From Acanthococcus lagerstroemiae (Eukaryota; Arthropoda; Insecta; Hemiptera; Eriococcidae): DNA of 64,000 nt. Location: positions 5,270,001 through 5,334,000 of the forward strand of contig CM063114.1 in the NCBI GenBank assembly GCA_031841125.1, given 5' to 3'. Below, piece by piece: positions 9,011 through 57,790 of this stretch (its first letter is position 1; every line of letters starts with the position of its first letter). The translations under genes and the position numbers were made by a program. Below the pieces are notes generated by a model. That model saw only the letters and a program-made list of their open reading frames with translations. It was not told where the DNA came from and searched no databases.

Positions 9011-9667
9011 GTACTTATTTGCGTCATTTGCTATGTGTCCTTCTTGCGACACACCTTCTTTATGGTATTGGAAACGTTTCAGCTTCAAAAATACTTCGGG
9101 TATGTACCTCCTGATGTACGGCATACAATCATGCAATTTGTATGTGTTTTCCGAGAGGAAATTTTGGGGACTCCGAGCCATCTTTCAATTTCTTTTCCAC
9201 ATTTTAAAAATACGTAGAAGAAAATTTTTCTCATTATTCAAAAATATTTTCATATCTGCTCCAAAGGAAGTCTAATAATTATCTTCTCATTTCTTAAAAG
9301 AAGTGTCCATCTCTGAGTGTGAGTGAACTTGGTAATATCCGTGTGTAGGGTGTATCAATTCACTCGGTCAACATACTAGACGACAACAACCTCAAAATAA
9401 CAGAGATCAACAAAATTAAACAAATACCAGCCACAAACAGTAGACAGAATAACTAACAAACTAACACAACCAAAAAGCACAGACACTGAACCAACTACTA
9501 CAAAAACAGACAAATGCGCAGGCGCAATACCATTCACAGGAACACATACATACAAAATACAAAAAATCCTCAACCAATACAACATAAAACTCGGAATCAA
9601 AAACAGACCACCTCTGATCAAACAAATAAGCAATGATAAAACAGAGACAAAGAACAGAAACAACAGT

Positions 9668-9960
9668 AGCGGTGTATACAGACTGGACTGTGAACACTGT
9701 GACATGACCTACATAGGGGAGCAACAGGCAGAAAATTCACAACCAGAATCAAAGAACATGAAAAATCACAGAAGTTAAATGATGACAAATCACTGTTTGG
9801 AAAACACTGCAATGACCAGGGACATAACAATGACAATTTGACAGAAAAGTATAAAATCTTACACATAGAAAACAACACAAGAAAAAGAAAATTAAAAGAA
9901 CAACTAGAAATAATGAAGGTAAAAACAAAACAAAACAACCTAATGAACACAACAACTAAC
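9668..9960 (+). pseudogene. GIY-YIG endonuclease domain of the Penelope-like element (frameshifted)
   Basis: The plus strand reads SGVYRLDCEHCDMTYIGE, the GVY...YIG signature of the GIY-YIG nuclease with the CxxC typical of Penelope proteins. Just before it is NQYNIKLGIKNRPPL, the linker that follows the reverse transcriptase in this family. Near 9720 the frame shifts; the next frame continues GRKFTTRIKEHEKSQKLN and FGKHCNDQGH, which supply the arginine and the HxxxxxH region expected downstream. In live elements this nuclease cuts the target DNA. This copy is broken by the frameshift and lacks the polymerase. The copy at 36203-37047 carries an independent frame error at nearly the same place. 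Confidence 0.88.
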
Positions 9961-10123
9961 TTCCAAAGTGAGAACTTATTCCAACTAATAACATAACACC
10001 CACGGATTGGACGGACTGCATATGAAGGCAACCAATAGGAGCACAAGACTAAACAGGTTTACCATACGGTACTACTCTCGACTATAACTACAGGACCACA
10101 ACAGACAAGACTCATTTAGTGAC

Positions 10124-10163
10124 TTCCACTGATGATGGCATAACAGCCGAAAGCGCTCTGGAA
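10124..10163 (+). ncRNA. Hammerhead ribozyme in Penelope-like element, copy 1
   Basis: All parts of a type I hammerhead can be placed: stem I TTCCA (10124-10128) pairs with TGGAA (10159-10163); the core CTGATGA is at 10129-10135; stem II is GGC/GCC around a short loop, with one extra T; the core GAAA is at 10149-10152; then the palindrome AGCGCT gives a very short stem III, with the expected cut after the C at 10158. Hammerheads are known in Penelope-like elements, usually with a minimal stem III thought to work as dimers. This copy has every core base. Activity is inferred, not shown. Confidence 0.85.
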
Positions 10164-10216
10164 CACAGAAGGAAAAAAGTGAATTGGCACACCCTACACA
10201 CGGATCTTAAAAGAAG

Positions 10217-12862: not shown

Positions 12863-13183
12863 CTATTTTGAGTTGAACGAGCGTGCACCGATCGAAATCG
12901 GTACTGGTTGAACGAAACGAGTTCGTATGTTGCCTACAGACTGCATTGGCAGGAAGCGCCCCAACTTGCGCGACAATTGGGTGCTGCAGCATGACAATGC
13001 GCGGTCAGGCGAGTATGGTGGATGTGGGAGGATTGTCAGACATGCGTCCGCCAGGAAGTGCATTGTTGAGGCAGATGTGTGAGGTCGGACATTGTCAAGG
13101 TGCAGTACCCAATTGTCGCGCAAGTCGGGACGCTTCCTGCCAATGTGGTCTGTAGGCAACATACGAACTCGATTTACGGGCAT
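12863..13183 (-). pseudogene. Fold-back mariner transposase fragment
   Basis: On the minus strand the peptide NWVLHLDNVRPHTSAST followed by LPHPPYSPDRA carries the second and third catalytic aspartates of a mariner-type DD34D transposase (consensus HDNARPH and PPYSPDL). About 95 bp of it (13080-13172) is repeated in inverted orientation at 12919-13013, where the plus strand reads LQHDNARSGEY. The locus is therefore a palindrome made of two head-to-head copies with a spacer of about 65 bp. Much shorter than the usual 340-residue protein; not functional. Confidence 0.8.
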
Positions 13184-13236
13184 TGGTCCTGGCGAATATA
13201 GGAGGGAAATTTAGTCCTGTACAAAAGTCAGAACTC

Positions 13237-15162: not shown

Positions 15163-16701
15163 TTACAATTTGAGAAGACCAAGTGTACTCAGAACAGGCA
15201 GCACTCTTCCAATCAAGGCCTCCTTATATCTCCATACATTTGCATCAGTAATGTTAGCTGCTCCTCTACACTTATCCCTTAAGCTGTGGTAGCAATAATG
15301 TTGTAGCTTAGCTGCATTCGGGGAAAACCAGTATATTTGCTTACAACCGCCGAAGCACGTGTGAACGGTGTGTTGCGTATCAAATTTTATATTATCGGGC
15401 TTACGAAAACATTTCATTTGGTATAAAAAAGGCTTCTCACTCTTAGTTTGGTTTTCCGTCCTGTGCACATGTCGGAGCATGTGTAGGTAATCCGGCACAT
15501 CCGGATAGTTCTGCTCGGGATACCTGTCATCGCCATGAAACCAGTAATTTTGCGCGCAAAATTGCGTCAAATTGTCTTTAGCATATGCTGGAATACTGTC
15601 AATCAAATCCTTCCAAGTGAATCCGTCCTGTGGTACTATAACTTCATCCACATCCATGAAGACTATGTATTTGTAATTATACATATTCCTGTATAGACAG
15701 TCGTGCAGTGCTATAAACTGGCTGCTCACGTACTCCTCAACGATTTGAAGGAACCTATCTTGGAGGATGGGTGTATTCGGTAGATCAGAGGGCAGTGTAA
15801 ATCGATGTAGCTGTACTTTACCTTCCTGTTCGTAATACTTCAGTACCTTAGAAACGTTCTCGTGATGGTGATGGTAATAGACGAATATTTTGTGAGCTCC
15901 GAGCAGGTTAACCAGTTCAACCCATTCTGCAATCCTAATAGAGATATCCAAGCGGGCGAAGTTTAGAGGTGTAGAGCAGACCGCGAAATCCTGCTTCTTT
16001 TCTGATTTGTTATAAATCACTCGCAAATGATTTGTCGCTGTGTCGCACTTCTTTTCGACTAGCGATACTGAATCAGGTACCTGGGAAGTGTGCTTTGCTT
16101 GTATGGGGCACGTAATGATATATATGGAATATTTTTTTCTTGCTCCAGGATAAAGAGAGATACACTCTGGCTTTATTGTTCTAACAATCTCTGGCTTGAA
16201 GAATCCCGGAAACCACATCTGACAAAACATAACCGCACTCTTTCTAATATGAAAACCTGTGACTAGTATTCTGACCGCGGGTTTTACGTCGCTTTTCGGG
16301 CGATTCTCGTAATAAGCAGCAAATAAATACCAAGCACCATTTGACGTTAAAAGCGACTGCCAGTATTCGTTGTGGAATGACTCGTGAAGTTGAGGATACG
16401 GCGCGCAATGATTGCTGAAGCTGTACTTGTCATGATGGAAGCTCGTGTTGGAGTAGGCCGACGGCAAGTTGGGAATTTCCTCGGATATATCTTGCAACAA
16501 AAGAGGCTGTGGTGTGTCTGTCCGTGGGCTTATAGTGCACAGCTCCAGGGGAATCGATCCATTTACCATACGAGTATTGCTAAGGTTCACAAAAAGTGCG
16601 ATGCCGCAGTAGACCGCGAAACTGACAAATAATAAAATATAGAAACGTACTAGCAATTGTCTGATTTTTGGTTTGATCCAGTTCATATCTTGTGGTAACA
16701 T
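15163..16701 (-). CDS. Glycosyltransferase family 92 (GT92/DUF23) protein, paralogue 1
   Basis: A 512-residue open frame without introns. Residues 1-18 are short and basic, and about 19-40 form a hydrophobic signal-anchor, giving a type II membrane protein, presumably of the Golgi or ER. A luminal stem of about 190 residues follows. From about 235 to 485 comes the GT92 domain: FAVCSTPLNFARLD, IRIAEWVELVNLLGAHKIFVYY, and YIVFMDVDEVIVP with the metal-binding D-x-D at D350-D352. C-terminal cysteines and NYWFHGDD are further conserved positions. Characterised GT92 members add galactose to fucose or N-glycans; the substrate here is unknown. The first ATG has a purine at -3; M6 is an alternative start. 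The 3' flank is homologous to that of the paralogue at 22004-23551. Confidence 0.93.
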   Translation of the reverse strand: MLPQDMNWIKPKIRQLLVRFYILLFVSFAVYCGIALFVNLSNTRMVNGSIPLELCTISPRTDTPQPLLLQDISEEIPNLPSAYSNTSFHHDKYSFSNHCAPYPQLHESFHNEYWQSLLTSNGAWYLFAAYYENRPKSDVKPAVRILVTGFHIRKSAVMFCQMWFPGFFKPEIVRTIKPECISLYPGARKKYSIYIITCPIQAKHTSQVPDSVSLVEKKCDTATNHLRVIYNKSEKKQDFAVCSTPLNFARLDISIRIAEWVELVNLLGAHKIFVYYHHHHENVSKVLKYYEQEGKVQLHRFTLPSDLPNTPILQDRFLQIVEEYVSSQFIALHDCLYRNMYNYKYIVFMDVDEVIVPQDGFTWKDLIDSIPAYAKDNLTQFCAQNYWFHGDDRYPEQNYPDVPDYLHMLRHVHRTENQTKSEKPFLYQMKCFRKPDNIKFDTQHTVHTCFGGCKQIYWFSPNAAKLQHYCYHSLRDKCRGAANITDANVWRYKEALIGRVLPVLSTLGLLKL

Positions 16702-16756
16702 GACAGCTGGCCCCTGTGTTCAAGTCGCTATAACCTACGTTAAAAAACAACGAATT

Positions 16757-18778: not shown

Positions 18779-20066
18779 TAATAATAAGCCTTTATTGATT
18801 AGAGGTACATTACAGAACAGGAATGTGTGTCTCCCACGTGCTTCGCCCTCATTCCGAATGTACCCCTGGCCCATGGAGGGCAAAGGTACCCCTCACCCTC
18901 TCCCATTCCTTTCGATCTTGGGCAATCTGGTGAAAAAGTTTATTTTTGATATAACCGTCAATCTCGTTCCTCCACCTAGTTTTTTGTTTTCCTCTGCTTC
19001 TTGTTTTATGACTTAAGAACCAAAAGGTGGATTGGTAAGATAATCTATCTTGAGGTAGTCTCGCAACGTGCCACGCCTATCCCCATTTTAGGTTTCTAAT
19101 TAGTTGTACACAATTTTTTACGTTGGGAAGTTTTTCCCGGGTTACCTTCAGACTGATTTTGTCCTTTATTTTTATCCCTAGAATGGAGCGCATCATCGAA
19201 TTTTGGGCTGTTTCCTAAATACGTTGTTTCTGAGACTACTTCAAGCTCTTTATTACCGACCAAGATTTTTGGTTTCTTTTGGGAAGTTGTTATAATTTTG
19301 GATTTTTCAATGTTAATTGTTAGCCCTGCTAATTTTCTGCTTTCGTTCAGTTCTTGAATCATTTCTCCCAGCTCAACCAGTGATTCTGATTTAAGAACTA
19401 TATCGTCTGCAAACCTCAGGTTCGAAACTTTGATTTCGTTGATATTTAAGCCTTTGTTTCTCCATTCTAGCTGTCTGAAAACTTCCTCTAGGACCATGTT
19501 AAAAAGACTAGGTGACAGCGGGTCCCCTTGACGAACCCCCATTCTTATTCCAAAATATTCTCCCGTTTTGTTTGTAATGAGACGACTTTCTGGGCCCTGA
19601 ATACATTTCTTCTATCATTTTGGTAATTTAGTAAGGGACTCCCTGGTTTTGTAGTGCTCGTATCATGTACTGATGATTCAAAGAATCAAACGCCTCATTG
19701 TAGTCGATGAATGCCAAGCTTATATTCAGATTGTATTCCGAGGATTTTTCTAAAATTTGGTTTTTAGTGTGAAGATGATCTAGTGTAGAGTAGTTCTTCC
19801 TAAATCCTGCCTGGTTTGGGGGTTGTTGAAGTTCCAAGTAGTTTTTTATTCTCGTTTCCACGAGCTTGGAGAAGATTTTCGAGATTGTTGCGATGTCTAT
19901 TTCCTTTTTTGAATAGTAGCATTACATCAGAAAGTTTCCATGTTTTTTGGTATTTCCCCGGAGGACCAAATTTTGTTAAAGAGAGAGGTGATTGCCTTGA
20001 TCATCTCCTCGCCTCCATAAATAATGTGTTCGTTTTTTATTCCGTCGCTACTTGGCCCTTTCTGAT
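18779..20066 (-). pseudogene. LINE reverse transcriptase, RTE-like, 3' half, frame-broken
   Basis: Read on the minus strand from 20066 downwards the frames give KGPSSDGIKNEH, then LQQPPNQAGFRKNYSTLDH (Q-A-G-F-R box), SLAFIDYNEAFDSLNH, MGVRQGDPLSPSLFNM, and VSNLRFADDIVL with the catalytic F-A-D-D. Next come LAGLTINIEKSKI and a degraded C-terminal region. Stops and frameshifts separate the pieces (for example near 19620 and 19900). The 3' end is a short (TTA)n-like tail at 18779-18800 that abuts the CATA duplication of the Ginger-like element. The N-terminal endonuclease is missing. The left end stops where the GT92 duplication block begins. Confidence 0.9.
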
Positions 20067-22003: not shown

Positions 22004-23551
22004 TTACGAGTTGAGAAAACCAAGTGTATTCAGAACAGGCAGCACTCTTCCAATTAAGGCTTCCTTATATCTCCATATATTCGCATCAGTAATACTAGAT
22101 TTTCCTCTACATCTATTCCTTAAATTGCGGTTGCAATAATGTTGTAGCTTAGCCTTATTCGGAGGAAACCAGTATATTTGCTTGCAACCGCCGAAGCACA
22201 TTTTAACGGAGTGTTGCGTATCGAATTTTATAGTGTCAGGCTTACGGAAACATTTCAATTGGTATAAAAAAGGACGACTCCTACTCACAGTGTAGCTTTC
22301 CGTCCTGTGCACGTGTCCGAGCATGTGTAGGTAAGCAGGTACCTCCGAATAGTTCTGCTCCGTATAGGTATCATCATCATGAAACCAGTAATTTTGCGCA
22401 CAAAATTGCGTCAAATTTTCTCTAGCGTATGCCGGAATACTGTCAAACAGATCTTTCCAGGTGGATCCAACCTGCGGTATTATGACTTCATCTACGTCCA
22501 GAACTGCTATATATTTATAATTATACATATTCCTGTAGAGACAGTCGTGCAGTGCTACATACTGGCTGTTCAAGTATTCACCAAATGTACGAAGGAACCT
22601 ACCCTGGAGGATGGGTCTATTCGGTCGATCAGATGGTAGTGTGAATGGGTGCAGCTGTACTTTACCTTCCTGTTCGTAATATTTCAGTACCTTAGAAATG
22701 TTCTCGTGATGGTGATGGTAATAGACGAATATTTTGTGAGCTCCGAGCAGGCTAACCAGTTCAACCCATTCTGCAATCCTAATAGAGATATCCAAGCGGG
22801 CGAAGTTTAGAGGTGTAGAGCAGACCGCGAAATCCTGCTTCTTTTCTGATTTGTTATAAATCACTCGCAAATGATTTGTCGCAGTGTCGCACTTCTTTTC
22901 GACTAGCGATACTGAATCAGGTACCTGGGAAGTATGTTTTGCTGGTATGGGGCACGTGATGAGATATAATGTCACATGATTCCTGGAAAAGTCTCCAGTG
23001 GATGGAAAAAGAGGGATCTTCTCTGGCTTTTTTGTCTTAACAATCTCTGGCTTGCGGAGTCCCCGAAACCACATCTGACAGAACATAGCCGCACTCTTAT
23101 TAATGTGAAAACCTGCGACTAGTATTCTGACCGCGGGTTTTATGTCGCTTTTCGGGCGATTCTCGTAATAAACAGCAAATAAATACCAGACACCTTTTGA
23201 CGGTGAAAGCGACTGCCAGTATTCGTTGTGGATTGATAATTCTTGAAGTTTAGGATATGGCGCGCAATGTTTGCTGAAGCGGTACTTGTCATGATGGAAG
23301 CTCGTGTTGGAGTAGGCTGACGGCAAGTTGGGAATTTCCTCGGATATATCTTGCAACGAAAAAGGCTGTGGTCTGTCTGTCCGTGGGCTCACGCTGTACA
23401 ACTCCAGTGGAATCGATCCATTCCCGGTACACGTTTCAGCGAAAACTACGAGGACGTAATAGATCACAAAGCAGACAAATGCAAACACGCAGAACCATAC
23501 CCGCCATCGTTTAATTTTTGAAATCACGTAGCTTACATAACTTGGCCACAT
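22004..23551 (-). CDS. Glycosyltransferase family 92 (GT92/DUF23) protein, paralogue 2
   Basis: A 515-residue intronless open frame. A basic start is followed by a hydrophobic anchor at about residues 18-38, the stem, and the GT92 domain from about 238, with YIAVLDVDEVIIP carrying the D-x-D pair at 352 and 354. From NGSIPLEL (residue 44 on) it is closely similar to the paralogue at 15163-16701, while the first 43 residues are largely different. Small insertions occur near 184-193 (STGDFSRNHV), where paralogue 1 is shorter. Both frames keep the catalytic motif and cysteines, so both are probably functional enzymes of the secretory pathway. The substrate cannot be told from sequence. The upstream region is not homologous to that of paralogue 1. 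Confidence 0.93.
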   Translation of the reverse strand: MWPSYVSYVISKIKRWRVWFCVFAFVCFVIYYVLVVFAETCTGNGSIPLELYSVSPRTDRPQPFSLQDISEEIPNLPSAYSNTSFHHDKYRFSKHCAPYPKLQELSIHNEYWQSLSPSKGVWYLFAVYYENRPKSDIKPAVRILVAGFHINKSAAMFCQMWFRGLRKPEIVKTKKPEKIPLFPSTGDFSRNHVTLYLITCPIPAKHTSQVPDSVSLVEKKCDTATNHLRVIYNKSEKKQDFAVCSTPLNFARLDISIRIAEWVELVSLLGAHKIFVYYHHHHENISKVLKYYEQEGKVQLHPFTLPSDRPNRPILQGRFLRTFGEYLNSQYVALHDCLYRNMYNYKYIAVLDVDEVIIPQVGSTWKDLFDSIPAYARENLTQFCAQNYWFHDDDTYTEQNYSEVPAYLHMLGHVHRTESYTVSRSRPFLYQLKCFRKPDTIKFDTQHSVKMCFGGCKQIYWFPPNKAKLQHYCNRNLRNRCRGKSSITDANIWRYKEALIGRVLPVLNTLGFLNS

Positions 23552-24232
23552 GATAGTTTTTCACTGTGTGTAGCTGCTGGAGCGTCTCTATCTTAACAAT
23601 CCACGAATTCCAGTCGCAAGACAAAACATTTTGTACACCGATTACTAGACATTTTAACTTCCTTTTTCGAAGACGTTCCTGGCCTTACTGACTGAAACTT
23701 ACATTGATAAAATGTAGATGAATAGAGACCATCGAGAGGGTATAAATCACAAATGGACGCACCATTACGTAGAATCACCGCTCGTAACTTACTTCTGTGT
23801 CATTAAATAGTAATATCAAGGCCATGCACACGTCATGGGTCACACACTCCTCTACTGATAAAGCTCGAAGTATGCTTATCATCCATACAAAGTCAGTATT
23901 CTGTTATAACATACGATACGATGATATAGTAAAAAGTAAAAAAAAAAAAATAATAATAATAATAAAGTATATGACCGCACCCAATACCACAGTTTACCAC
24001 TTGAAATAATTTATTGAATAACAGTCCGCATGTGTTATCTCACTGTCACTTGTTTTAAACCTGAAGTAGTGGAGTTCGTGTTACGCTCGTGAAGGATATT
24101 TCACGAATCCCCCCCCCCCTCCATACTTCATTGTGGAAACTGTCACGATCTTACAGGTATGAAGTTTAGTGTTCCTTACAGCGTCAAAAATTATCTCTTC
24201 TGCGAACGCGCGAAAGGCGGAGATCCGTCAGC
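23552..24232. other. Upstream of GT92-2; no further gene
   Basis: Contains an (AAT)n/A-rich microsatellite at 23939-23966 and a C run at 24110-24119. The minus-strand open frame at 23593-23778 could be 5' leader of the GT92 gene but has no recognisable protein. Confidence 0.35.
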
Positions 24233-35930: not shown

Positions 35931-36202
35931 TCCATTACTTTAGTTTTATTTTAATTTATTTTCATACGATATTCGGATTCCGCAACAAAGTGGGCGGCAT
36001 CTAGTGGACGTTTTCATAACTAACGAAAGAGTGATAGAACGATACGAGGATACGAATTTCATTAATATTCTTTACCAATCTTGTAGTTTGGTTTCTTATC
36101 CGTTTTAGTTTGGTGTTTCACTTTTCCTTACACTTCACTTCTGATTCTTTACTTTTATTTTGCAACTTAGTAATGATTTTGTTTTAATATTACGAATATC
36201 AG

Positions 36203-37047
36203 TGTCCATTTCTGAGTGTGGGTGAACTTGGTAATATTCCAAAATTAAACAAATAGCAATTAACAACAAATACCAGCCACAAACAGTAGACAGAATAATT
36301 AACAAACTAACATCACCAAAAAGCACAGACACTGAACCAACAACCACAAAAACAGACAAATACGCAGGCGCAATACCATTCACAGGAACACATACATACC
36401 AAATACAAGAAATCCTCAACCAATACAACATAAAACTCGGAATCAAAAACAGACCACCTCTGATCAAACAAATGAGCAACGACAAAACAGAAACAAAGGA
36501 CAGAAACAAAAGCAGCGGTGTATACAGACTGGACTGTGAACACTGTGACATGACCTACATAGGAGAAACGGCAGAAAATTCACAATCAGAATCAAAGAAC
36601 ATGAAAAATCACCGAAGCTAAATAATGACAAATCACTGTTTGGAAAACACTGCAATGACCAGGGACATAACAATGGCAGTTTGACAGAAAATTATAAAAT
36701 CCTACACATAGAAAACTACACAAGAAAAAAAGAAAACTAAAAGAACAACTAGAAATAGTAAAGGCAAAAACAAAACAACATAATAAACACAACAACTAAC
36801 TTCCAAAGTGAGAACTTATTCCAACTAATAACATAACCCCCACGGATTGGACGGACTGCACAATCACAGACAACCAATAGGAGCACAAGTCTAAAGAGGT
36901 TTACCATACAGTACTACTGTAGACTATAACTACAGGACCACAACAGACAAGTCTCATTTAGGGTACTCCACTAATGATGGCATAACAGCCGAAAGCGCTC
37001 TGGAATACAGAAGAAGAAAAAGTGAATTGGCACACCCTACACACGGA
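36203..37047 (+). mobile_element. Penelope-like retroelement, copy 2
   Basis: Closely similar to 9304-10204 over its length, with the same start (TGTCCATTTCTGAGTGTG) and end (ACACCCTACACACGGA). It codes for FTGTHTYQIQEILNQYNIKL, GVYRLDCEHCDMTYIGETA and, after a 1-base loss near 36570, FTIRIKEHEKSPKLNN-like sequence on the next frame. The inverted copy of the 3' end near the 5' end, present in copy 1, is deleted here. No target duplication is clear, so it is older. Long minus-strand frames across it are shadows. Confidence 0.85.
36966..37005 (+). ncRNA. Hammerhead ribozyme in Penelope copy 2, core mutated
   Basis: Aligned with 10124-10163: stem I TCCA/TGGA, stem II GGC/GCC, GAAA and the AGCGCT palindrome are kept, but the core reads CTAATGA, with the invariant G5 changed to A. 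That base is needed for catalysis, so the copy is predicted inactive. Confidence 0.75.
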
Positions 37048-40000
37048 ATTTTCCCAAAAATATCTCAATACTTCTTATCATCAACAATCTGATTTAAGGC
37101 TTCCGAAACATTTTTATCATATTTAAGTTCTTGTAATATAATGACATAATTTTCATACACTAAAAGAAGATCTACTCTACATTGATTTTGACCAGGAGCA
37201 TATTATACAACCTCGAAAAAACACTTAAAGTTAGTTAGTAGTCTCTAATTTCTAATAATATATTAAAGTGTTTGTTTGTGTTTGTTCGAGCTTGGTCGGG
37301 TGAATCGTAAGAGCTGGGGGGTTCGTATTCCTATTAACTCTGAATTGGTTTTAGGCTGTAACAAATTTCAATACCCTTATTAGAAGAGGGGCCACAAAAT
37401 TTTACCCCCTCTGGACCCTTAATTTTTTTCGACTTGGACATTTCAGAAGTGTTTTGCATTGAACTTTTTCATATTATGTTGAAATTTGGTGGCTGTAACT
37501 GCCTCCATTCAGAAATTATTAAGAGGTGGACATTTCTAATCTCTATTACATGTCAACGTGTTTGTTTGTCTCTGCCCCTTTCGGCGGATCCAGGGGCGTT
37601 AGAAATATGGTATCCATCCCTTTTGGCCATCACCGACTCTAAATTCAAAATTACACGCAACCGTGCCCGGGATCCCCCTTTCTTCCTGCTCTGTATGGAT
37701 GCTGAGGGTGCTGATGGAGTTGGAACTCACTGGTCTTCTTGGAGGTGGGTCTGCGTTCTCCGGGATCGTCTTCCTGGTGGGTCTAAAGGGCTGCTAGCAA
37801 AAGTGTAAACGTGAAATAATGGAGGCATAATCCATTTGAAGTGTCCAATGAAACTTTCTGAATGATGTTATTTAATAATTCACTGAAAAGTGCTCAGAGT
37901 AATTTCTGGATCTAACCGTAATAATAATTACGTGTTCAGTTAGTAGAACTATCAAATATTGAGAACCAACCTCTCAATAATTTCAGTATATAACAGAGCT
38001 ATAATCATTTTCGTCTCAATTTCCCTCTAATTTCTTCTTTAGGTTTCGTCATATTATAACTATTCAACGTAATTTGTTTTTAACAGGCTAAGTCACATTT
38101 TATCAATTTTTCAGAAGACGGAAAAATGATCCAGATTTTACCTAATTACATGAACGCTGGATTACTTCATGATAAGATAGCCTCAGTCTTTCTAAACCCC
38201 ATGGTACAGCACAGCCTTCAAAATATGGATTTTAACCAAAAAATGTAATAAATATGGATATATTCTTTCTGAAATGCAAATAGACGATCGCTTTTATGTT
38301 ATTATTCCGTTTTGGTGGTCTGTAATGTTCAAAGTTCAAAGAATTGTACATCTTACTCCAAGTTCAACAGAAGCCATTGACCTTTGAATTTAATATTCCT
38401 CAGTATTCTCGGTAGGACTCCATTCATACATAAATTAAAATGTCCATCTGGCCCATTTTAAGTATTTTGAGGCCTGAGTCTGGGTTGAATAAAACATAGG
38501 ATGAAAATTTCAAAATCACTGACCCAGAAAAACTGTAGTAGGTATGATAAGTTGAAAGATTCTTTCGGTTTTTGGTTCACGTTTGTTTATTCTAAAATTG
38601 GGATGGAGAAATATTGAAATTTTTTGGAATGTTGAACTTTTGACGTGCTCATGGTTTAGAACATAGAAACCCGACTATGTTCAGCTTAAAATTCCAACGA
38701 TAATTTCGTTCAAAACATTAGAATTACTGCTGGAGAAATTTTCCTCCGAAATTCTACAGAAAATTCAGCACTATTCTAAAATCGTTTACCGTGTATCTCT
38801 AGGTCTTTTCGGATGATAGAAAATTGGAGGTCAAGTATTGCGACGTTAACTTTGATCTCCCCTCCCCAAAAAGGGATTGATCAAAAAAATTTTAATTTTA
38901 ATTTGAAAGGAGCCATTTGAGAACATTCTATATCGACTGCAGATCCTAAACTCGAAAAAAGTTTCAAATTTCGTTTTTTATTTGTTGGATTTAATATTGT
39001 TGTGGAATCTACCGAGCCACGGTAATGTATATTCGAAGACGTGCTGGAAAATGAAAAATCGAACCGTGGTGTTTCATCTGGAGTGATGAATAGCGCCTCG
39101 TGAACACGTAATTTAATAAACTGTACCCCGGCCCTGTCAACAAAAATTTTACGAAGCCTTGAACTGAAGCTTTCGCGGCACGAAAACCAGAGGAAATATT
39201 AAAATTAAAATTAAAGCCGGGGATAACGGGGCTACAAAATGTTTTCTTATTTGATAGTGTATAATGAAAATATTAGCGTTGTTATAACAAAACAGATGGG
39301 ACCTGTATTGCCGAACTTGGGAATAATTAATAATCCGTTTTGTGTTCCTGTAAACGGAATAAAAAAAGCTATTAAACTATTGCCTTTATTACTCTAAAAA
39401 GGAAAACTGGTACCAAAATTATGTTTAACGTATTACGTGGAATAAAATTATACGACCAGAAAAAAATGTTTTTCGTGAGAGATAATTGCCAACAGTCAGC
39501 AGCCTACGAGATATGCTCCAGACTCGGTAAGATTTTTGTTTTTACATGTTTTGGAAGAAAACCTTATCACTGAATCCCCATTGTTTTAGTTATTTGTTAT
39601 GAACAGCCCTGTATCTGAAGAACAATTTGTAATTTTCTTCCTGTGTTTCAAAAAACTGTTCTCTGACATTGGTTACTCTGAGTCTTAAGACTCGGGCTGC
39701 TCGCCCTCTTCCCTCCATAAGTACGAACCTGAAAAGCGAGAACGACAAAAATGACTAAAAGAGTGTGGAAATTACGGAAATATTGGAAAATATTGAAATG
39801 GTAGAAATGACTGCAGAGAGAGAAATGACGGAAACTCTTTTTTCCCTTTTGTGTAAAGGTGTTCTCTTTTCGTGTTTTTTTAAAATATTTTTTCGCCCTG
39901 TCCATCAACCTTGTTGTATACCTTCATAATATTTTCTGTCTCTTCCCCCAATGGTAGTGACAGACCTTTAGCCAACTTCTTCTGTCAGTAGTGGGGTAAA

Positions 40001-54530: not shown

Positions 54531-54979
54531 GTATCAGCGTTGCCAACCCTAGTGATATAACATTAGGTCTAAGTGTTTTTCACATTTTAAAAAGTCTAGT
54601 GATTTTGTTGGTGATTTTTTCTTGTTTTGTGATTTTAGTGTGTTTCGTAGTTGTCTGCTTCAATTTTTCAATTTTCTTGGTTTTTGTGAGTATTTAAGGT
54701 CGGATAAAAGGGGTGCGGATTTATAGCGTTTTCCATCTGGTAGTACTGGTTATGTCCTTATCAGCAGTATTCCCAAACGCGTCGGTATTTCATGCCACTT
54801 TCGGAAGAAAAAACCAGCCACCGCAAAATTCCTAGAGTGAACCCTCCTGTCCTCAGTTCCTGTTTTTTCACGCGCGCGTCTTCGATTTTCGCGCACAAAT
54901 TAGGCGTTTCTCGCGTTTGTTTTAAACGCGCCGGATTTTCACGCGTGCGTCTTCGTTTCAGTGGTGTCTGATGTGATCT

Positions 54980-56356
54980 GATGAAATTCTTCGAAAATAA
55001 TCATAAATTTTTCCTCAATATTTTCGATCAAATTCCTCGGAAATCAAAGGATGAATCTCTCGAAGAGTGATGATGAAATTTTTTGGAAATCGTCGCAGAT
55101 TTTTCCCAAACATTTCCCAAGAAGATCATCAAAAATTATCGGAGATTTTCGACGAAATTCTTTGGAAAACATTGGTATTTTTCTGAAAATTTCCGATGAA
55201 ATTCTCCAGAAATCATCAGGGATGGTTCTACAGATTTCTATCCGACAAAATTCTCTTAAAATCATCGGGATTTTTTTTTTTTTTACAATAACGAGACTTT
55301 TAATGCCTAACGGCTATGGTCTCGGAATGGAATTACATGGAATTACAATAGTTACAGGGTTTGGGTTTTATGGTTATAGGTAAGCGGTGTACATCTTAAG
55401 ATTTAAATTAGGTTTAGTATACAGTTCTGAACTAGGAAATCGATTAGTAGTGACAAATTCTTTAGCTGAAGTAGGTTGTCCGGGTTGGTGTTTTGGTGGT
55501 ATTTGGTGCAGCTATTGATGATGTGTTGGATGGTGAGTTGTGAGTGGCAGGTATCGCAATTCTCAATTATATGTCCGATGAAATTCTTCGAAAATGATCG
55601 GAAATTTTTCCTTAATATTTTCGATAAAAGTCCTCGAAAATTACTTTCGGAAATCAAAGGATGAATCTCTCGATTTTCCCCAAACATTTCCCAAGAAAAT
55701 CATCAAAAATTATCGGAAAACTTTCGAAGAACTTCTTTGGAAAACATTTGGAGTTTTTTCTGAAAATTCCCGATGAAATTCTTCAGAAATCATCAGAGAT
55801 TGTTCTACAAATTTCTTTCTGACAAAATTCTCTTGAAATCATTGGGGAGTTTTCTCAATTTTGTACGATGGAATTCTTCGAAAAAATCGGAAGTTTTTCC
55901 TTAATATTTTCGATAAAAATCCTCAGACATCTTGGGAAATCAAAGGATGAATTTCTCGAAGATTTCTGATGAAATTCTTTGGAAAACATCGCAGATTTTT
56001 CATAATCATTTCCCAAGAAAGTCATCAAAAATTATCGGAAAATTTTCTCGAAGATTTTCGACAAAGTTCTTCGGCAAACATTGGGAGTTTTTTCTGAAAA
56101 TTTCCAATGAAATTCTCCCAGAAATCATCAGAGATTGTTCCCAAAGATTTCACTGCAATAAAATTCTCCTGAAATCATCTGGAATTTTTCTCAATTATGT
56201 CCAATGAAATCCTTCGAAAGTGAACGGAAATTTTCCCGAATATTTTCGATAAAATTCCTGGTAATTATCTTCGGAAATCAAATTGGAATCTTCTCGAAAA
56301 TTTCTGATGAAATTTTTGGAAATCATCGCTAAATTTTCCCGAAGATTTTCGATGAA
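54980..56356 (+). repeat. Higher-order minisatellite, unit about 300 bp
   Basis: Units start at 54980, 55577, 55867 and 56203 with (G/A)ATG(A/G)AAT.CTTCGAAA and contain, in order, AATATTTTCGAT, GGAAATCAAAGGATGAAT, CATTTCCCAAGAA..TCATC, AAAAATTATCGG and TTCTGAAAATT. Each unit is in turn made of about 40-50-bp variants of GATGAAATTCTTCGGAAATC. Unit 1 is split by the LINE at 55274-55561, unit 2 has a small deletion near 55674 and unit 4 is partial. Confidence 0.9.
55274..55561 (-). pseudogene. 3' end of a Jockey/CR1-like LINE inserted in the minisatellite
   Basis: The minus strand reads CDTCHSQLTIQHIINSCTKY, the C-x2-C...H...C zinc knuckle typical of the C-terminus of such LINEs, then LSLLIDFLVQNCILNLI and a stop. 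A poly(T) on the plus strand (55270-55284) is its poly(A) tail. The satellite sequence resumes directly at 55562 with CTCAATTAT, as in units 2 and 3, so both borders are well defined. 5' truncated, as is usual for LINE insertions. Confidence 0.82.
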
Positions 56357-56690
56357 ATAAATAATTGTACAACTTTATTCTCGGGTGACAAAACAAAACT
56401 GCCATGTTTTCGCGTATTTTTTCGCACATTATTCCTCGCCTGATTCGCCCATGAAATACGAAATTGGAACGAATGCGAATAGTGTATTACTGATGAGAGC
56501 TGATGAGTGATGACCTAAAAACCGAAGACGTACCTGCACACGAAAAAACGCCGCAATGAAAAACCTTAAGGAAAAACAGACAGTGATAACTGATAACTCG
56601 ATCATAGCGGGAAAAACAGAAAATAACGCAGGAACTCTGCTGGGTTTTTCTTCCGAAAGTGGCATGAAATACCGACGCGTGTATTCCCAA

Positions 56691-57419
56691 TACTCCCGAA
56701 TTCGTATTAAAAATAATAATAATAATTCAATCGCTGATGTCGCGTTCATGTATTTATTAATATATAAATAGAAAACTGAGACAAACTAAAGGCCTTACTA
56801 CATATCACTTGGATGCCTTTCCTTAGATTGTAGATTGGAATCATTTATTTCAAAAATTTTTTTTGGAAAAAGATGTCTGTAAGATACAGAGTATAGATAC
56901 CACTGAAGCTCCCATATATTTTCAGGTATGTGTGACTTGTCAAGAAGAAAGGGAAAGTATCCAAAGAAATGATTTTGAGGAACTCGATCAGTTATACCTA
57001 ATCTGGATTATAAAATTTGAAAAAAAATGGCTTTTCAACAAGCAATTCAATCGAAGATTGGCTGACAAAAAAAATCGACATACAGGCAGAACAGATTGTA
57101 CTCTTTTTAGAGGGAAATAGTTTTCCAGACTGCTAAAAAAGAATGTCCTATTTTTTTTTAAAATTGGCAATTACACTCTATTTTTTCAATAATTGCTTCT
57201 CTGTTTTGACTAGAGAAACTTGTACACCTTGATAATCAAAAATCTTCGTATAACACGTAAATTATATAGGTCACATTGTATATGCGTATAATTTCTATAT
57301 GTAAGAATCACTAAAAAGTGATTTTTTCTCAACCTAAACAAGGGTTTTTTCTATTCATGGGTTGGCAACGCTGTGCTGTATGAGAAACATGACTAAGTAA
57401 TCAGTATAGAAAAGATAGT
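56691..57419. other. No gene recognised
   Basis: AT-rich with an (AAT)n stretch at 56707-56725. The plus-strand frame 56863-57120 has no recognised domain. Confidence 0.3.
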
Positions 57420-57546
57420 ATCCATATTGGAGTGTGAGTGACCTTGGTAAATCCTATATTTAGGGTGTGCCATGATGGCATAGCAGCCGAAAGCGCTCTG
57501 GACTACAGAAGGAAGAAATTGTAAATTGGCACACCCTAAATATAGA
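57420..57546 (+). mobile_element. Minimal Penelope-derived element, copy 3
   Basis: Only 127 bp. It joins the Penelope 5' tip (GGAGTGTGAGTGACCTTGGTAA) directly to the hammerhead region and the 3' tip (AAATTGGCACACCCTAAATA), with all coding sequence absent. The two ends are inverted repeats of each other over about 26 bp with one mismatch. It sits beside, or in, a copy of the SINE body that resumes at 57553. Confidence 0.8.
57467..57505 (+). ncRNA. Hammerhead ribozyme remnant in the minimal element
   Basis: Retains TGATGGC...GCC, GAAA, the AGCGCT palindrome and CTGGA, but the first bases of the CTGATGA core are missing (GCCATGATGG). Predicted inactive. Confidence 0.65.
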
Positions 57547-57552
57547 ATTTAC

Positions 57553-57790
57553 CTAGACTACCCTACCTAGTAGGCCGCGCGACGTGATCGCTTCAGTCGT
57601 CCATATCCGAATGCAGATATGGCCCTGAAAGAAGGTATTCTGCAACGTGAGAAATATTTAAGTTAGATAATATCGTAAATACATTAACCACAATTTCTAT
57701 TATCACCTGTCATAAACCAGTCCTAAACAGCTTTTGGAGCACTTGATTTGCCTGAGAGCCTCCGAAAACAATGTCCATGACTCCCTGTAT
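57553..57790 (+). repeat. SINE body, partial copy
   Basis: Reverse complement matches 49990-50215: GTGATCGCTTCAGTC, AGATATGGCCCTGAAAGAAG, ATTTAAGTTAGATAATAT and GATTTGCCTGAGAGCC. Confidence 0.65.

What the first reader, a model, noticed from the sequence alone, without database searches (positions are those of the whole stretch)
10124..10163. Apparently complete hammerhead ribozyme with a palindromic zero-loop stem III
Seen: CTGATGA, GGC/GCC, GAAA, AGCGCT and the stem I pair TTCCA/TGGAA all fall in the type I hammerhead order, with the cut expected after C10158. Known: Penelope-like elements carry hammerheads with minimal stem III that act as dimers. Inference: this copy keeps all core bases and its palindromic stem III suits dimer-only cleavage. 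One unpaired T before stem II is unusual.
Basis: partly seen in the sequence, partly recalled or inferred. Interest (0 to 1): 0.8.

Follow-up and report, generated by a model that had tools for sequence, protein, structure and literature searches.

The report
Dimer-type hammerhead ribozyme of Penelope retrotransposon
The 40 bases are an intact-looking self-cutting RNA motif in the end repeat of a broken copy of a common mobile element (a Penelope-like retrotransposon) in an animal genome, a kind that is already known, although this family's copies are joined at their ends in an unusually regular way.

Summary
The motif is real, at the stated coordinates, and not chance. It is a minimal type I hammerhead in the pseudo-LTR of a 5'-truncated Penelope-like element (PLE): insertion 9302-10204, 10-bp target duplication TCTTAAAAGA, broken endonuclease frame upstream of the ribozyme. 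Two sister copies lie in the window: 36,966-37,005 (core G5 to A) and 57,472-57,503 (cut off inside the core). The family is abundant in the same 658-Mb genome. The "unusual" T is fixed (66 of 67 copies) and lies where a lizard PLE has its start codon. Folding prefers a double hammerhead through the palindromic stem III, but also for a copy with a damaged core, so it says nothing about activity. Rfam misses the motif and 20 sister loci; sister copies show one compensatory change. Dimeric PLE hammerheads are published: new member of a known kind. Beyond the finding, all 36 head-to-head arm pairs found have one long and one short tail, two ends about 36 nt apart, which suggests two coupled but different reverse-transcription starts; one further insertion has a tail-less arm. 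None of 91 copies starts at the predicted cut.

The parts
10124..10163 (+). Hammerhead ribozyme: stem I 10124-10128/10159-10163, CTGATGA 10129-10135, extra U 10136, stem II GGC/GCC, GAAA, palindromic stem III AGCGCT 10152-10157, predicted cut after C10158
9302..10204 (+). Whole insertion of the Penelope-like element (5'-truncated)
   Evidence: arms end at 9302 and 10204; identical 10-bp flanks
9292..9301 (.). Target site duplication, left copy (TCTTAAAAGA)
10205..10214 (.). Target site duplication, right copy (TCTTAAAAGA)
9302..9364 (-). Inverted arm with long tail (ends +114 counting C3 of the core as +1)
9401..9778 (+). Decayed reading frame with GVYRLDCEHCDMTYIGE, part of the PLE GIY-YIG endonuclease; homology goes on to 9993 in another frame, so the frame is broken
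   Evidence: GIY-YIG Pfam match on relatives only; none on this frame at E<=0.01
10164..10204 (+). Short tail downstream of the ribozyme (ends +77)
36201..37057 (+). Second copy of the element: inverted arm 36201-36240, endonuclease frame 36235-36621, direct arm 36822-37057 (right boundary uncertain by about 10 nt; no clear target duplication)
36966..37005 (+). Hammerhead of copy 2: core reads CTAATGA (G5 to A), so probably inactive; outer stem I pair C.A
57417..57556 (+). Third copy: head-to-head mini-insertion, inverted arm 57417-57472 and direct arm 57472-57556, truncated inside the hammerhead core; no clear target duplication

Best explanation
The motif is the minimal type I hammerhead of a Penelope-like retrotransposon family, lying in the pLTR just upstream of the points where the element's cDNA starts. 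In RNA from a working element, two such motifs would pair through the self-complementary AGCGCU stem III and swap stem I strands, giving a double hammerhead that cuts after C10158. The monomer, with at most one stem III pair, is expected to be nearly inactive unless a protein helps. The copy at 10124 is a 5'-truncated insertion with a broken endonuclease frame; it keeps the family's ribozyme as a remnant and probably has no host function. Shown: sequence, insertion anatomy, target duplication, family membership. Computed: dimer preference. Inferred: cleavage, and its use in processing element RNA.
For: Core, stems and order present and beyond chance. Three copies in the window. 47 genome matches from the 40 of 2628 candidates that were scored. 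Endonuclease homology in 32 of 67 fetched family loci (some overlap) and in window copies 1 and 2, up to 76% identity to a metagenome relative; GIY-YIG Pfam matches of E 0.0015 for that relative and 2.3e-4 and 0.032 for two family copies, all under the curated cut-off. 3' ends at two places about 36 nt apart (46 short, 45 long of 91) match the PLE 'tail' and the two reverse-transcription starts described for PLEs (text). Dimer -28.3 against -22.2 kcal/mol for two monomers, stem III pair probabilities at least 0.84; of all 256 four-base loops, GCGC is among the 10 with the largest dimer gain (-6.1, median -1.6). 32 of 67 gap-free copies keep core plus stems.
Against: No Rfam hammerhead match. 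One double change in stem I among 67 copies. The core is hardly better conserved than its flanks, 0.964 against 0.954 in 48 copies. The dimer fold is at least equally preferred for copy 2 with a damaged core (-27.1 against -18.8), so it is no evidence of activity. One of three endonuclease pieces gave no GIY-YIG match (L090), and the relative has no match among solved structures. No reverse transcriptase was seen joined to this family; the searches meant to find full-length copies did not complete. No copy of 91 starts at +31, the expected 5' end of a cut RNA. No activity data.
Confidence: 0.85

Rival explanations
1. The motif is a hammerhead-shaped remnant with no catalysis in this family: the sequence is kept because it codes for the start of the element's protein or lies next to the reverse-transcription start, and resemblance to an active ribozyme is inherited only.
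For: Core not clearly more conserved than flanks; one frame is open across the whole motif in 5 of 5 copies translated; no copy start at the cut site; the Anolis PLE hammerhead was not needed for insertion in vitro (text).
Against: All core bases, the A15.1-U16.1 pair (67 of 67) and a palindromic stem III occur together in the common form; the Anolis hammerhead does cut when protein is added (text).
Confidence: 0.25
2. Chance match in unrelated repeat DNA.
For: No Rfam match; the stem-less pattern is no better than chance.
Against: 35 of 33,200 Markov windows; the family carries it in the published PLE position.
Confidence: 0.01
3. Non-autonomous retrozyme or satellite carrying a type I hammerhead rather than a PLE.
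For: Many type I hammerheads of animals sit in short tandem repeats of about 300 bp (passages).
Against: Endonuclease sequence upstream, PLE tails and inverted arms; no head-to-tail array in the fetched loci apart from an internal duplication of about 66 nt and the two pieces in L047.
Confidence: 0.03

Closest known systems
Hammerhead motifs of Penelope-like elements (Cervera and de la Pena 2014; Lunse, Weinberg and Breaker 2017; neither paper is held; known here from titles in reference lists and from passages of reviews)
   Same: Type I order, helix III almost absent, position in the pLTR, palindromic stem III suited to double hammerheads
PAc (Poseidon) of Anolis carolinensis, Frangieh et al. 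2024, PMC11167929 (outline and main text section read; methods, figures and supplements not)
   Same: Hammerhead at the pLTR-ORF junction, an ATG overlapping A9 at the start of stem II (my inference for PAc), cut 24 nt from that A here against 26 there, cDNA starts at two sites downstream, tail of 30-40 bp
   Different: Here a stop follows that ATG within three codons in the window copies and in all 5 copies translated, so a protein start there is unproven; the element's protein was not found whole
Penelope elements of Adineta vaga, PMC3846280 (passages read)
   Different: There the tail is called optional; here 36 of 36 paired arms carry exactly one long and one short tail
Rfam hammerhead models
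   Same: Core consensus (recalled)
   Different: No match at the thresholds tried

Membership tests
Type I hammerhead ribozyme | CUGANGA and GAAA core in order, stems I and II, A15.1-U16.1, H17 | tested here: met
Type I hammerhead ribozyme | Match to a curated covariance model | tested here: not met
   no Rfam hammerhead match. I file it as the minimal PLE variant, not as a member of the Rfam family
Type I hammerhead ribozyme | Compensatory changes in stems | tested here: inconclusive
   one double change in stem I, none in stem II, among 67 close copies
Type I hammerhead ribozyme | Self-cleavage after H17 | not testable with these tools
   needs transcripts
PLE minimal (dimer-type) hammerhead | Very short stem III with palindromic loop, dimer favoured | tested here: met
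   (folding only)
PLE minimal (dimer-type) hammerhead | Tandem pLTRs able to pair in cis | tested here: inconclusive
   among the fetched loci, which hold mostly 5'-truncated copies, only L047 has two hammerhead-bearing pieces in one orientation, about 350 bp apart
Penelope-like element | GIY-YIG endonuclease at the C-terminus | tested here: inconclusive
   E 0.0015, 2.3e-4 and 0.032, all under Pfam's cut-off; one piece without match; window frames without match at E<=0.01
Penelope-like element | Telomerase-like reverse transcriptase in the same ORF | not tested
   genome searches for the endonuclease and thus for full-length copies did not complete
Penelope-like element | pLTR with tail, inverted arm, target duplication | tested here: met
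Retrozyme | Short tandem repeat monomers with hammerheads | tested here: not met
   fetched loci only

The most novel reading that the evidence does not exclude
Each PLE insertion with a head-to-head structure is made by two coupled cDNA starts, one on each target strand, that use different start sites about 36 nt apart (one long arm, one short arm, never two alike), on RNA that the hammerhead has not cut. The ribozyme would then act before or after, not during, template use. This is an asymmetry that the published in-vitro work on PAc did not report between strands.
Probability: 0.4. Interest if true: 0.6.

Novelty: new member of a known kind. Interest (0 to 1): 0.38.

Why it matters
What the hammerhead does for Penelope-like elements is called unknown in a 2020 review (passages). 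A genome with many young copies of one family lets the question be asked by counting ends: where cDNA starts, where it stops, and whether any end falls at the ribozyme cut. Here none of 91 segments starts at the cut, and the two cDNA starts are paired one long with one short in 36 of 36 arm pairs, which constrains models of how these elements insert. The family is also missed by Rfam in the 20 loci tried.

Tried and rejected
Chance: rejected by simulation and by the family. IMG/VR pattern scan: 26 stretches, none with both a stem I of 3 or more pairs and a full stem II, taken as chance. IMG/VR scan for the endonuclease: 5 stretches matched a pattern, none confirmed. First genome pattern had the wrong spacing (11 N instead of 13); its counts (562 and 496 against controls 104 and 130) are not used. 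An apparent cluster of copy starts at the hammerhead's 5' edge was largely an artefact of using the window copy as query; with another copy as query it spread out, leaving a mild excess between -13 and +8 that I do not interpret. Arm-to-arm identity is slightly higher within than between insertions (0.936 against 0.918; 24 of 36 pairs usable; 0 of 2000 permutations reach it), which does not separate self-priming from two primings. Which frame holds the protein start is unresolved: in 5 of 5 copies translated the ATG frame has a stop right after the ATGs, and another frame is open across the motif (the script's frame label for L078 is wrong because that copy lacks the exact core letters). Pfam on the window's endonuclease frames: nothing at E<=0.01.

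Rows left out of counts: one search drops identical segments and those that do not reach the tail; the arm-pair counts drop hits ending before +70 and take only neighbouring arms facing each other within 1500 bp, with the long/short limits set after seeing the two end clusters; one search drops copies with indels or more than 9 substitutions in 53 nt; one search uses 48 of 86 distinct segments.

Full report
What is there. A two-strand descriptor scan finds this site alone in the window, and 35 of 33,200 Markov windows of the same size have any hit with the stricter descriptor. Without stems the pattern is at chance level. Rfam has no gathering match in the window and no hammerhead at E<=10 around the site; 20 sister loci also give no hammerhead at E<=1. 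I take it that the Rfam models do not recognise this short form, but I ran no positive control for that.

The element around it. A repeat search shows two sister copies, at about 36.2-37.06 kb and 57.42-57.56 kb. Copy 1 is an insertion from 9302 to 10204 flanked by TCTTAAAAGA on both sides. It starts with an inverted arm (9302-9364), goes on with a decayed frame containing GVYRLDCEHCDMTYIGE (9401-9778), the pLTR and the hammerhead, and ends in a short tail. The only relative listed for the endonuclease frame of copy 2 is a JGI protein, 55% identical over 72% (one of 4 candidates at E<=0.001). That relative matches the GIY-YIG domain at E 0.0015; of three family pieces, two match at 2.3e-4 and 0.032 and one (L090) does not. 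All are below the curated cut-off, the window frames themselves gave no match, and the relative has none among solved structures. tblastn of the relative finds the endonuclease in 32 of 67 fetched family loci (some overlap) and in window copies 1 and 2, at up to 76% identity. Copy 2 has CTAATGA in the core; copy 3 begins inside the core, the letters before it being the inverted arm.

The family. The window lies in a genome of 658 Mb; 47 matches to the pLTR came from only 40 scored of 2628 candidates. Of 67 distinct gap-free copies, the extra T after CTGATGA is present in 66, A15.1-U16.1 in 67, and 32 keep core, four stem I pairs and stem II. Stem I shows one double change; its usual fifth position is a C.A mismatch, which copy 1 has as T-A. 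In 48 near-complete copies the core is conserved at 0.964 and the flanks at 0.954. The copies look as if they decay neutrally, so they neither prove nor refute selection on the ribozyme.

Why the extra T is not odd. [quoted passage not shown] That puts A9-U-G there too (my inference; figures not held). Here the same ATG lies at 10135-10137 and the cut 24 nt from its A, against 26 in PAc. But a stop follows at once in the ATG frame of the window copies and of 5 of 5 copies translated, while another frame is open across the motif in those 5. The true start of the protein is unresolved.

How it would work. Folded alone, the motif forms stems I and II but no 15.1-16.1 pair (probability 0.0). Two molecules fold without constraint into a double hammerhead with a six-pair AGCGCU stem III (probabilities 0.84-0.998) and exchanged stem I strands, -28.3 against -22.2 kcal/mol. 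As a control, of all 256 possible four-base loops GCGC is among the 10 with the largest gain (-6.1 against a median of -1.6), though some loops that are not palindromes gain more by other folds. Copy 2, whose core is damaged, prefers the dimer at least as much, so folding says nothing about activity. Reviews (passages) state that PLE hammerheads lack helix III, may cut as dimers, and have an unknown role; the PAc hammerhead cut only when protein was added. Among the fetched loci only L047 has two hammerhead-bearing pieces in one orientation, about 350 bp apart. Full-length tandem copies, which would allow a dimer in cis, could not be searched for because the genome search stopped answering.

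Beyond the finding: ends of the copies. With a real family copy as query, 91 distinct tail-bearing segments end in two places: +74 to +88 (46) and +111 to +114 (45, of which 39 exactly +114), counting C3 as +1. These fit the two ends of the PLE tail. Where two arms face head to head, 36 of 36 pairs have one long and one short arm. 21 of these pairs were fetched only through the long-tail query, so there only the second arm is informative; 15 were not (8 through alone, 4 through both, 3 in the window; my tally of the loci). 21 of 36 share a flanking word of at least 8 nt against 2.75% for shuffled flanks, so at least these look like single insertions. Another 21 copies had no tail-bearing partner (11 short, 10 long). 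One of them, L082, has a 12-bp target duplication and an inverted arm that ends inside the hammerhead without a tail, so the rule is not a law for every insertion. Published text calls the tail optional on one of the inverted pLTRs (PMC3846280, passages), and the in-vitro work saw no difference of start site between strands. Two primings at different sites explain the pairing better than a hairpin copy of one cDNA (inference), but arm similarity does not decide. No segment of 91 starts at +31, the first base after the cut; the nearest are +26, +26 and +27. With 24 starts over +1 to +77, about 0.3 per position, this only excludes a strong hot spot.

Verdict. A real, family-wide hammerhead of a Penelope-like element, of the published minimal dimer type: a new member of a known kind. 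Activity is unproven. The long/short pairing is the more interesting lead. Paper searches; in the listings and in what I read of the papers I saw no statement of such a strict pairing, but the two key papers on PLE hammerheads are not held.

Noticed in passing
fetched loci L035-L101: Head-to-head arms pair one long with one short tail in 36 of 36 pairs found; 21 of 36 share flanking words of 8-12 bp. L082 has a tail-less inverted arm.
   Followed up: yes
window 15163-16719 and 22004-23560, minus strand: Two related 518-aa glycosyltransferase family 92 frames (Pfam on the first); named relatives of the second are mainly insects and crustaceans, with one tick and one frog entry, so the host is probably an arthropod.
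   Followed up: partly
window 54977-56361: Diverged direct repeats, 12 copies in one family with many spacings of about 45-46 bp; an old satellite-like array.
   Followed up: no
window 19096-19611 minus; 12863-13210 minus: Fragments of a reverse transcriptase (RVT_1) and, below the curated cut-off, of a DDE_3 transposase.
   Followed up: no
L079 and other family copies, about 76-209 nt upstream of the core: The pLTR of many copies holds a tandem duplication of about 66 nt that window copies 1 and 2 seem to lack.
   Followed up: no
L045, L091, L094: Head-to-head mini-insertions score below the gathering limits against several microRNA families of Rfam, presumably because they form long hairpins.
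   Followed up: no
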